Shown: positions 12,940 through 16,473 of the stretch, in pieces
How positions within the stretch are numbered: position 1 is the first letter of the stretch
Layout: each line of letters begins with the position of its first letter
Translations under genes and position numbers: made by a program
Notes under the pieces: model-generated
Database searches by the model: none
Told to the model about the DNA's origin: nothing
What the model saw: the letters and a program-made list of their open reading frames with translations, nothing else
From: Zetaproteobacteria bacterium
GTDB lineage: Bacteria; Pseudomonadota; Zetaproteobacteria; Mariprofundales; Mariprofundaceae
Length of the DNA: 33,690 bases
Reading direction: 5' to 3'
NCBI GenBank assembly: GCA_021545645.1
Contig: JAJRWP010000046.1
Coordinates: 1 to 33,690 of the forward strand

Positions 12940-13105
12940 GAAAAAGGTTGATTTCTTATTTGTTGATGCCGCCCGCTACTGCAAACGCAGATGCGATAAG
13001 ACTTGTTGGTATTCAGTCTCGATTCGCCGCAGTCAGAAATTCTTCGATTCAAAGTCCGCGCTGAATTTACACAACTGGTACGCTAGCTTATTTTACCTAG
13101 CCCTC

Positions 13106-14368
13106 CTACTGCACGGTATAATCAAATCCGCCAAGAGGATTCTTCGTCACAGCGATATTCGCCACCGGCACTGGCGATGCATTACCGCCTGAAAACCTAG
13201 GTGCAGCAAGAACCCGCGAAAAAGATTTAACCGCTGTTCCCGCCTTAATCTGCACCGTCGCCGTTTCCGGTCGCGCTGATCCGCTATAATAATTGACCCC
13301 GACAGCATAGTTTCCCGGTTGAATTGTATTGCATGCAATAAAATAGTGTTCGGGTCCAAAACCCCATGTGTTGTCCACATCCAGAAAGCCATTCACGCCC
13401 TGTCGCCGTGCATAAAAAACATGTGCGCCGCTAGGCTCGAACACATGCAAATCCACATCTGTTGCATGCGTCCAAGTTAGGGTAACGGTAACTGCGCCGC
13501 TAGCCAACGTCGCCTGTGGATATTGCAGACTCTGTAACATCGCCGACATATTGGACAAAATCATTGGCTGGGTAGAAAAACCGCGCATATAGTGCTTTGT
13601 AAAACTATGACCCATCACATCCTGACTGGTGCCGTCTCCGGCATTCGTCACATTGGCGGGTAACGGCGGCACAATACCCGGCACACCGAGAGCTGCGGCG
13701 GCTGTAATCGCACCAATCACCAAATCCTCCGAGGCCGTCACATACGGGCCGCCACTGGCCACAAAACTTGCCGGTGAGGCCACCTGCACATTGCCAACAT
13801 TCGCGGCAAACTGACCACTCAAAGCACTATACGCAGCATTGGCATAGAAATTCCCTTGCGAGTGCGACACAATCAACACTCGCTTGCCTTCCTGCAATGC
13901 TGGTCGATAAATAGTATTCAGATGGCTCTGCAAATCGGCATCGTTCGCATAGACTCGCGTTGTCGCCTGCGCCGCGATATTCTTCATCGCTTGCTGAAAC
14001 CACGTCGGAGCAATGTCGATACTTGCCAGCAACCGCCAGAAATAGCTGGTGGAATCCCCCCTTTTCTGAATATACACCTCTAATAGCTGCCTTAGGCCGG
14101 AAAGAGAGCCGGGGCCAGTCGCCCCGCCATTGTCGGCATAGGCCAGCTTAAATGGCGCAAGTTCGGCGCGAAGGGTAGAAGATGCAGGCAGTGAATTCTT
14201 GAATGTATTTTGAAGTTTCAACATTGATACCTTGGCTCCATATGGAGTGTTAAACATCCCATTCCCATAAACAACCAGCGTCTTACCTTGACATATCGTG
14301 ACAGCATATGCCGAATTTCCGATGGCAAGAAAACTGGCAAGGAAAATAAATCCAATAATTTTTTTCAT
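13106..14368 (-). CDS. secreted lipase/alpha-beta-hydrolase-like protein with C-terminal DUF2135-like beta domain
   Basis: Signal peptide MKKIIGFIFLASFLAIGNSAYA; VSHSQGNFYANAAY nucleophile-elbow-like motif; VTLTWTHATDVDLHVFEPSGAHVFY domain. Confidence 0.6.
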   Translation of the reverse strand: MKKIIGFIFLASFLAIGNSAYAVTICQGKTLVVYGNGMFNTPYGAKVSMLKLQNTFKNSLPASSTLRAELAPFKLAYADNGGATGPGSLSGLRQLLEVYIQKRGDSTSYFWRLLASIDIAPTWFQQAMKNIAAQATTRVYANDADLQSHLNTIYRPALQEGKRVLIVSHSQGNFYANAAYSALSGQFAANVGNVQVASPASFVASGGPYVTASEDLVIGAITAAAALGVPGIVPPLPANVTNAGDGTSQDVMGHSFTKHYMRGFSTQPMILSNMSAMLQSLQYPQATLASGAVTVTLTWTHATDVDLHVFEPSGAHVFYARRQGVNGFLDVDNTWGFGPEHYFIACNTIQPGNYAVGVNYYSGSARPETATVQIKAGTAVKSFSRVLAAPRFSGGNASPVPVANIAVTKNPLGGFDYTVQ

Positions 14369-14377
14369 ATAGCCCCC

Positions 14378-14884
14378 TTAGTTCGGCATCGCATTGGGGT
14401 TGAATTTGCAACCCTGGATCCCCTTCGCCAACGAAGAAAACCCTCTTCCGCTCAAGTTCCGATTCGCCTGTATATACGCACGAGATCGCAGCGCCGTATT
14501 CATGATAACTGCATCAAGTAGTTCCGAGTACCGGATAGCTTCTCCTGTGTCTGGATTCGGATAGATATACCACAGACAATCAATCGCTTTCCCCATTTGC
14601 ACGGCGGCGTCGTAAACCAATTGTTTGTCATTCGATAGCAGCAACATATTCTGATTATCCTGCGCCATTTGCCTTAGCGCCGCCCGCGTCTTCTGCGAAT
14701 TGGGGAATGTGATCGCAATCCAACGCTGCACGTCGTCGCGCACCCCGTCGCCGTCCGAATCGATGCCTGCCAGTGTCAGTTTTCCCGCCGGGCCGGGATC
14801 GGGCGGCAGACTGTCAAGCACATCATCTACCGCCCGCGCCGAAGCGCCAAAAGAAAATAACACCATGAGAAATATCGCGCACAT
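14378..14884 (-). CDS. secreted protein with Ca-binding-like DSDGDGVRDD motif
   Basis: MCAIFLMVLFSFGASARA signal; PPDPGPAGKLTLAGIDSDGDGVRDDVQRWIAITF. ORF track start 14899 is a TTG overlapping the upstream TGA; ATG 14884 is an alternative. Confidence 0.65.
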   Translation of the reverse strand: MCAIFLMVLFSFGASARAVDDVLDSLPPDPGPAGKLTLAGIDSDGDGVRDDVQRWIAITFPNSQKTRAALRQMAQDNQNMLLLSNDKQLVYDAAVQMGKAIDCLWYIYPNPDTGEAIRYSELLDAVIMNTALRSRAYIQANRNLSGRGFSSLAKGIQGCKFNPNAMPN

Positions 14885-14895
14885 TATTCCCCGCC

Positions 14896-16323
14896 TCAAT
14901 TCGGCATCGCATCAGGATTGAACTTGCAACCCTGTTTCTCATTTCCAATCCCCAAACTAGCTATCCCTCTTCCGCTTAAATTTCGACTCGCCTGCATATA
15001 TGCACGAGATCGCAGCGCCGTATTCATGACCATACTTTCCAACAAGCTTCCAGTATCGTAGGAATTGATCGGATCAATATATTCTATACATTCAGTTGAC
15101 ATCCCCATCCGAATAAAGGCATCGTAAACTCGTTGTTTATCGTTCGCCCATAGCAGCATATTCTGAAAATCCCCTGCCATCTGCCGCAGCGCCGCCCGCG
15201 TTTTCTGCGAATGGGGGAATGTGATCGCAATCCAACGCTGCACGTCATCGCGCACACCGTCATTATCCGAATCGATACCTGCTAATGTCAATTTGCCAGC
15301 AGCACCGGGGTCGGGGGGCAACCCGGCCAGCACGGAAGTATCATTGACCGTTACAAGCTGGGTTGCCGTCACGGCATTGCCGTTGGCATCGGTAGCTGTC
15401 CAAATCACGGTTGTTGCGCCGAGCGGGAAAGTAGCTGGCGCATTGTTGATAATCGTAACTGGCGCAAAAGCATCAATCGCCGTAGCTGTGCCAATCACAA
15501 CCGCAATCGGCTGGCCGGTTGTCGAATCCACAGTAACGGCGGCGGGTACGGTAATAATCGGCGGCGTGGTATCCTGCACCACCACATTCTGCGTCGCACT
15601 GGCCGTATTCCCCGCTGCATCAGTGGCCGTCCAAACGACCTGTGTTACGCCCAGCGGGAATGTCGCAGGTGCATTATTCACGGGCACAATCGCGCCGCTG
15701 ACCAAATCGCTGGCAGTAACAAGTCCGAGATTCACCGGCGTTGGCGAGACTGTCGCCTCGACGGTGATTGCCGGTTGCCCAATGGAAATAACGGGTGGGG
15801 TGGTATCTGTGATCGTCACCGTCTGCGTGGCGATTCCGATATTGCCCGCAGCATCACTGGCGCGCCATGTCACGGTATTCACACCGAGGGCGAACGCACC
15901 TGTAACGGAAGGCGTGGCGATCAATCCGACATTCACATTATCCGTCACCGAGGCAACACCAAGAATGACATTGGTCAGCGACCCTGTCGCTTCCTGCGTG
16001 ATATTCAAGGGAGGGACAATAACTGGCGGTGTAATATCCACTACCGGCACTGGCGGTGCGGGCGTTGGTGTTACACCTCCAGCCGTTCCTTCATCTGCAT
16101 TGTTATTGCCAGAGCTATTGGAATGACTGTTTTTGTCAGCTTTTTCATCATCGCCTTCATCTGCATGGCGTTGATCGTCGGCATGTTTGTCTTTGTTCGC
16201 ATCGTCATCGGCGATGGCTGTGCTAACGCTCGGAAACAGGATGCTCGATGGCAGATCCACCGCCGAAAATGGCGATGCAAACCAACCTAAAAAAACACTT
16301 ATCCAGATGATGCGCTTGAACAT
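14896..16323 (-). CDS. secreted/surface protein with about three HYR-like repeats and a C-terminal DSDNDG domain paralogous to the next gene
   Basis: Repeated DTTPPVI…ATFPLGVTQVVWTATDAAGNTASATQNVVVQDTTPP units; acidic linker after signal peptide; SD AGGAGG. Confidence 0.72.
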   Translation of the reverse strand: MFKRIIWISVFLGWFASPFSAVDLPSSILFPSVSTAIADDDANKDKHADDQRHADEGDDEKADKNSHSNSSGNNNADEGTAGGVTPTPAPPVPVVDITPPVIVPPLNITQEATGSLTNVILGVASVTDNVNVGLIATPSVTGAFALGVNTVTWRASDAAGNIGIATQTVTITDTTPPVISIGQPAITVEATVSPTPVNLGLVTASDLVSGAIVPVNNAPATFPLGVTQVVWTATDAAGNTASATQNVVVQDTTPPIITVPAAVTVDSTTGQPIAVVIGTATAIDAFAPVTIINNAPATFPLGATTVIWTATDANGNAVTATQLVTVNDTSVLAGLPPDPGAAGKLTLAGIDSDNDGVRDDVQRWIAITFPHSQKTRAALRQMAGDFQNMLLWANDKQRVYDAFIRMGMSTECIEYIDPINSYDTGSLLESMVMNTALRSRAYMQASRNLSGRGIASLGIGNEKQGCKFNPDAMPN

Positions 16324-16355
16324 GGTTCCCTCCTTGCCCGGCGACTTCAGGCGAC

Positions 16356-16387
16356 ACTATACCCCCCCCCCATCGGGTCAATGTCAA
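16356..16387 (-). promoter_or_regulatory. putative phase-variable promoter with G10 spacer tract
   Basis: Minus strand: TTGACA (16382-16387) / TTGACC (16376-16381) … G10 (16362-16371) … TATAGT (16356-16361), 5'UTR of about 26 nt to ATG 16323. Confidence 0.65.
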
Positions 16388-16473
16388 GATGGGAAATCAG
16401 AAAAGGCTTGATTTAGTTCATTCGCTCACAGGCAATGCATGTGTCGCCAGTCAATTCTGTTATCCTCGCCCAC

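What the first reader, a model, noticed from the sequence alone, without database searches (positions are those of the whole stretch)
16356..16387. Poly-G slipped-strand promoter with two alternative -35 boxes in front of a secreted-protein operon
On the minus strand the sequence reads CTTGACATTGACCCGAT-GGGGGGGGGG-TATAGT, 26 nt before a likely TSS-to-ATG leader with an AGGAGG SD. The G10 tract forms half the -35/-10 spacer. With 10 Gs the spacer is 20 nt from TTGACA and 14 nt from the overlapping TTGACC, each exactly 3 nt from the 17-nt optimum. Loss of 3 G (G7) would optimise the perfect TTGACA, and gain of 3 G (G13) would optimise TTGACC. This matches the established logic of phase-variable promoters with homopolymeric spacers (e.g. 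porA/opc in Neisseria), here with an unusual possible two-ON-state design. The downstream genes encode a HYR-repeat surface protein, a paralogue and a lipase-like protein, which are plausible phase-variable targets.
Basis: partly seen in the sequence, partly recalled or inferred. Interest (0 to 1): 0.82.

Follow-up and report, generated by a model that had tools for sequence, protein, structure and literature searches.

The report
Slippage-tuned promoter in marine iron-oxidizers
A run of ten Gs sits exactly between the two halves of a promoter for secreted proteins in a marine iron-oxidizing bacterium, and the same arrangement recurs with different run lengths across its family, mostly before surface-protein genes, so these free-living bacteria probably switch surface proteins on and off by random copying slips.

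Summary
Minus-strand TTGACA-N20-TATAGT contains G10 (16362-16371), 38 nt before the ATG of an exported HYR-repeat protein with a strong SD. The window belongs to Mariprofundaceae (Zetaproteobacteria).

Comparison supports a spacer-length (porA-type) contingency promoter. The same core recurs with G9 in a congener, before another exported gene, although rsmA is only 72% identical. It recurs with an interrupted tract (GGGGAGGGG) before a paralogue. An apparent orthologue in another genus has G8 between -35 and -10.

Across 74 family genomes, TTGACA-C7+-TANNNT occurs at 11 sites (0 in the reversed-pattern control), most before exported proteins. In an outer-membrane barrel gene of four species the tract is C8, C9, C9 and C10; two of these leaders are identical over 73 bases except for C9 versus C10.

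The two-ON-state idea is not supported: the second -35 box is lost in the paralogue and absent from the other genus. The opc precedent is also wrong: its tract overlaps -35.

Within-population length variation, TSS and promoter activity were not testable. The kind is known; its family-wide use in free-living iron-oxidizers was not found in the papers searched.

The parts
16382..16387 (-). -35 box TTGACA (6/6)
   Evidence: conserved in G000:C96, G003:C23 and G071:C219
16362..16371 (-). G10 homopolymer abutting the -10, forming half of the 20-nt spacer; inferred slippage site
   Evidence: G9 in G003, GGGGAGGGG in the paralogue, G8 in G071
16356..16361 (-). -10 box TATAGT (5/6)
16327..16335 (-). 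Shine-Dalgarno region AAGGAGGGA
   Evidence: sequence; also present in the paralogue C96
14896..16323 (-). gene 1: exported protein (N-terminal signal-like segment), three HYR domains, C-terminal domain of about 145 aa
   Evidence: PF02494 E=1.1e-18
14378..14884 (-). gene 2: small exported paralogue of the gene 1 C-terminal domain (probable ATG at 14884; the longest ORF starts with TTG at 14899)
   Evidence: (75% identity to gene 1 residues 330-475)
13106..14368 (-). gene 3: exported protein with conserved SHSQGNFYAN motif (serine-hydrolase-like nucleophile elbow, inferred); no Pfam or NCBIfam family
12940..16440 (.). approximate extent of the operon lying between tpiA and rsmA; in G003 tpiA and rsmA are direct neighbours
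   Evidence: boundaries judged by eye

Best explanation
The tract is a contingency element inside a sigma-70-type promoter. Slipped-strand mispairing during replication changes the number of Gs, which changes the -35/-10 spacing and so the transcription of the operon for three exported proteins. With G10 the spacing is 20 nt, so the assembled allele should be off or weak; G7-G8 (17-18 nt) should be on. Shown here: the anatomy, its conservation, different tract lengths at the same position between species and paralogues, and recurrence of the same architecture before unrelated surface-protein genes in the family. Inferred: slippage within populations, the TSS, and the dependence of expression on G number.
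For: (1) Promoter core conserved in a congener with 72% rsmA DNA identity, but with G9 instead of G10. (2) Paralogue in the same genome with the same promoter and an interrupted tract, GGGGAGGGG. (3) G8 in the spacer before the apparent orthologue of gene 1 in another genus, G071:C219. (4) Family-wide TTGACA-poly-C-TANNNT: 11 sites against 0 in the reversed control; G version 6 sites against 3. (5) Most of these sites precede exported proteins: OMP barrels, an Ig-like lipoprotein, other lipoprotein-like proteins. (6) Outer-membrane barrel gene in four species with C8/C9/C10/C9; two leaders are identical over 73 non-coding bases except for C10 versus C9, while their coding DNA is 82% identical. 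(7) Further tracts in the same operon type: G13 and G11 at the ribosome-binding site of the gene-3 relative in G002 and G019, and a T8 run at the frameshift in G019. (8) Spacing effects of such tracts are established for porA, fetA and tp0126 (PMC7864442, PMC5320596).
Against: No length variation within the window's own species was seen; only one assembly is held. The paralogue keeps a 19-nt spacing with an interrupted, presumably stable tract, so a long spacer may be tolerated or needed. All four HYR-type promoters have 19-20 nt, not 17. Orthologous operons in G001, G002 and G019 have no promoter tract. MutS is present, which lowers slippage rates.
Confidence: 0.76

Rival explanations
1. An ordinary or regulated promoter with a long, G-rich spacer. 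The G run is kept for DNA shape or as part of an activator site that compensates for a 19-20 nt spacer (as MerR-type regulators do), and its length is not used as a switch.
For: All HYR-type copies have 19-20 nt spacers; the paralogue C96 keeps 19 nt with an interrupted tract.
Against: No dyad is shared by the spacers (MerR operators are dyads; read by eye from the alignment). Tract length differs while flanks are identical in the OMP gene. Poly-C tracts in other spacers have unrelated flanks and give 14-22 nt spacing.
Confidence: 0.15
2. A two-ON-state switch: G7 optimises TTGACA and G13 optimises TTGACC.
For: The arithmetic holds: G7 gives 17 nt from TTGACA, G13 gives 17 nt from TTGACC.
Against: TTGACC is TTGGCC in the paralogue and missing in G071; only the window and G003 have it. 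Reaching G13 needs three gains, and TTGACC is 5/6.
Confidence: 0.05
3. A neutral or assembly-generated G run, for instance poly-G from two-colour sequencing.
For: One other G12 in the genome (C131) follows a CRISPR-like repeat and could be such an artefact.
Against: The tract is embedded between conserved -35 and -10 boxes and recurs in independent assemblies.
Confidence: 0.04

Closest known systems
Neisseria meningitidis porA promoter (poly-G between -35 and -10)
   Same: Poly-G tract inside the -35/-10 spacer before a surface protein; spacing sets transcription (PMC7864442, citing van der Ende 1995)
   Different: Host-adapted bacterium and a porin; here a free-living marine iron-oxidizer and a HYR-repeat operon, with the length effect not yet measured
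Treponema pallidum tp0126 (OmpW homologue) promoter
   Same: Poly-G between -35 and -10, optimal when spacing is 17 nt (PMC7864442)
   Different: Unrelated bacterium; there the effect on transcription was established
Neisseria gonorrhoeae fetA promoter (poly-C in spacer)
   Same: Poly-C spacer tract altering expression (PMC5320596), like the poly-C sites found here in relatives
   Different: Different gene class and organism
Neisseria opc promoter
   Same: Homopolymer in the promoter of a surface protein
   Different: Poly-C covers the -35 region, not the spacer (PMC7864442), so it is not the right precedent

Membership tests
Spacer-length phase-variable promoter (porA/fetA/tp0126 kind) | Homopolymeric tract located between recognisable -35 and -10 boxes | tested here: met
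Spacer-length phase-variable promoter (porA/fetA/tp0126 kind) | Tract length varies among related copies while flanks are conserved | tested here: met
   G10/G9/G8 and C8-C10 between species and paralogues; C9 versus C10 with 73 identical flanking bases. Between species only.
Spacer-length phase-variable promoter (porA/fetA/tp0126 kind) | Tract length varies within a clone or population | not testable with these tools
   No reads, and one assembly per species
Spacer-length phase-variable promoter (porA/fetA/tp0126 kind) | Transcription depends on tract length, with optimum near 17 nt | not testable with these tools
   Needs reporter fusions
Spacer-length phase-variable promoter (porA/fetA/tp0126 kind) | Controls a surface-exposed or secreted product | tested here: met
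   HYR domains, and an N-terminal signal-like segment by inspection; relatives precede OMP barrels and lipoproteins. Surface location itself is inferred.
MerR-type long-spacer promoter | Dyad operator within a 19-20 nt spacer | tested here: not met
   No dyad shared by the window, C96 and G003 spacers (aligned, read by eye)

The most novel reading that the evidence does not exclude
Free-living Zetaproteobacteria carry a family-wide set of transcriptional contingency loci (poly-G/poly-C promoter spacers, plus poly-G ribosome-binding sites and coding tracts) that diversify their outer surface, perhaps against phages or for attachment, as host-adapted bacteria do.
Probability: 0.5. Interest if true: 0.72.

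Novelty: new member of a known kind. Interest (0 to 1): 0.6.

Why it matters
Spacer-length phase variation is known mainly from pathogens, where immune escape explains it. Finding it repeatedly in free-living marine iron-oxidizers, before outer-membrane and secreted proteins, would point to another pressure such as phage, grazing or surface attachment. It also gives a sequence signature that can be checked in existing metagenome reads. No paper in the held library joins Zetaproteobacteria with phase variation in a relevant way (one irrelevant hit).

Tried and rejected
Viral contigs searched for strain variants of the HYR and OMP promoters: none. Pfam, NCBIfam and PDB sequence searches for gene 3: no significant match. 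Counting all G/C>=8 tracts as regulatory: rejected, since many lie inside genes. Sites G070:C60 (inside a pilin-like gene), G013 (HU-like), G086 and G079 (7-mers, housekeeping-like) were treated as likely chance. MerR-type operator: no shared dyad. Two -35 design: not conserved. Structure prediction was not run; without an alignment it would say little about the promoter.

Full report
Observation. The reported anatomy is exact. On the minus strand TTGACA (16382-16387), a 20-nt spacer ending in G10 (16362-16371), TATAGT (16356-16361), AAGGAGGGA and ATG (16323) follow one another. G10 occurs in none of 100 shuffles of the window, and the TTGACA...TATAGT pair is expected 0.01 times. Only three places in the 2.0-Mb, 185-contig assembly have nine or more Gs in a row.

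Organism. A related contig, G019:C24 (156,300 bases), has the same length as Mariprofundus sp. UBA1536 DCPU01000001.1, found with the same protein. The window genome is in the same family as G019, so it is Mariprofundaceae, Zetaproteobacteria (for lineage). This identification rests on the length match and the shared family label.

Operon. Gene 1 has a signal-like N-terminus, an acidic linker, three HYR domains and a C-terminal domain that gene 2 repeats. Gene 3 has an invariant HSQGNFYAN stretch in four relatives, reminiscent of a serine-hydrolase nucleophile elbow. No family model or solved structure matches it, so 'lipase-like' remains an inference. In congener G003, tpiA and rsmA are direct neighbours with no operon between them, so the operon was inserted in the window lineage or lost in G003.

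Same promoter elsewhere. TTGACA-N4..22-GGGGTATANT occurs three times in 74 family genomes. The sites are the window (G10, spacer 20), a paralogue in the same genome (C96, GGGGAGGGG, spacer 19, same leader and SD) and G003:C23 (G9, spacer 19). Each stands directly before a gene for an exported protein with an acidic linker. The neighbours differ: rsmA in the window, an rnhA-like gene in G003 (identified by reading its translation). rsmA is 72% identical between window and G003, while the promoter core differs by one base and one G. The G003 and C96 genes run off their contigs.

Second genus. A wider search found G071:C219: TTGACATTTCGA-G8-CGTTC-TATGTT (spacer 19, -10 only 4/6). It precedes a protein whose start (MLRFLSVTILLSFLMAAPALAKDEEKGFFSNAW...) resembles gene 1 of G019 (MFRLFAISVLLSFLLVPPAFADDKGFFSSSW...). 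It also runs off its contig, so orthology is likely but not proven.

Family-wide pattern. TTGACA-N0..12-C7-N0..8-TANNNT gave 11 distinct sites in 74 genomes and none for the reversed pattern; the G version gave 6 against 3. Downstream products are an outer-membrane beta-barrel (PF13505) in four species, an Ig-like/Calx-beta lipoprotein, two lipoprotein-like proteins, a bPH_2 membrane protein, a LuxR-type regulator, and a few housekeeping-like genes with 7-mers that are probably chance. In the barrel gene the tract is C8 (G010), C9 (G073), C10 (G071) and C9 (G074), with spacers of 15, 15, 16 and 16. G071 and G073 share 73 identical non-coding bases from -35 to ATG and differ only in C10 versus C9, while the coding DNA is 82% identical. 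That is the strongest sign that the tract mutates faster than its flanks.

Other tracts in the same operon type. In G002 (G13) and G019 (G11) a G run fills the ribosome-binding site before the gene-3 relative, where other relatives have short SD sequences. In G019 that gene is out of frame at a T8 run by the SHSQG motif. These fit a contingency locus, but pseudogene formation or sequence error is not excluded.

Mechanism. Slippage changes spacer length, and so transcription. At G10 the spacing (20 nt) predicts low activity; G7-G8 predict high activity (spacings). That such spacing matters is established for porA, fetA and tp0126 (PMC7864442, PMC5320596). MutS is encoded; in Neisseria, a mutS mutant showed more opc tract variation (PMC3447861).

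What fails. The second -35 box is not conserved (C96 TTGGCC; none in G071). opc has its tract over the -35, not in the spacer (PMC7864442). All HYR-type promoters sit at 19-20 nt and one has an interrupted tract, so a use for the long spacer cannot be excluded.

Verdict. A new, well-supported candidate of a known kind, in a group where I found no report of it. It lacks population-level and expression evidence.

Noticed in passing
G010:C12 (L246/L207), start of the OMP_b-brl gene: The start reads ATGAAAAAATAA, one A fewer than in relatives (ATGAAAAAAAT), so the barrel gene is out of frame in this assembly, next to its poly-C promoter.
   Followed up: partly
G002:C3 near 51321 (L146): G13 in the 5' coding part of an oxidoreductase-like gene (MKVAIIGGGG / SGLAAAYHLKEQ) leaves the two parts in different frames: a possible coding contingency tract.
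   Followed up: partly
G019:C24, gene-3 relative (L033): Frameshift at a T8 run right after the SHSQG motif, besides G11 at the ribosome-binding site.
   Followed up: partly
G000:C131, L029:1882-2050: Three 37-nt direct repeats spaced 66 nt, CRISPR-like, followed by TCCGATCTCG and G12; the G12 may be a sequencing-adapter artefact. The same repeat occurs in G002:C3 (L147).
   Followed up: partly
several relatives, e.g. G001 L187, L189, L194; G019 L165, L168: G8-G10 runs often sit at the ribosome-binding-site position in this family.
   Followed up: no
window 14425-15333: Gene 2 and the C-terminal part of gene 1 are a tandem duplication (265-nt repeat, 76% identical).
   Followed up: no
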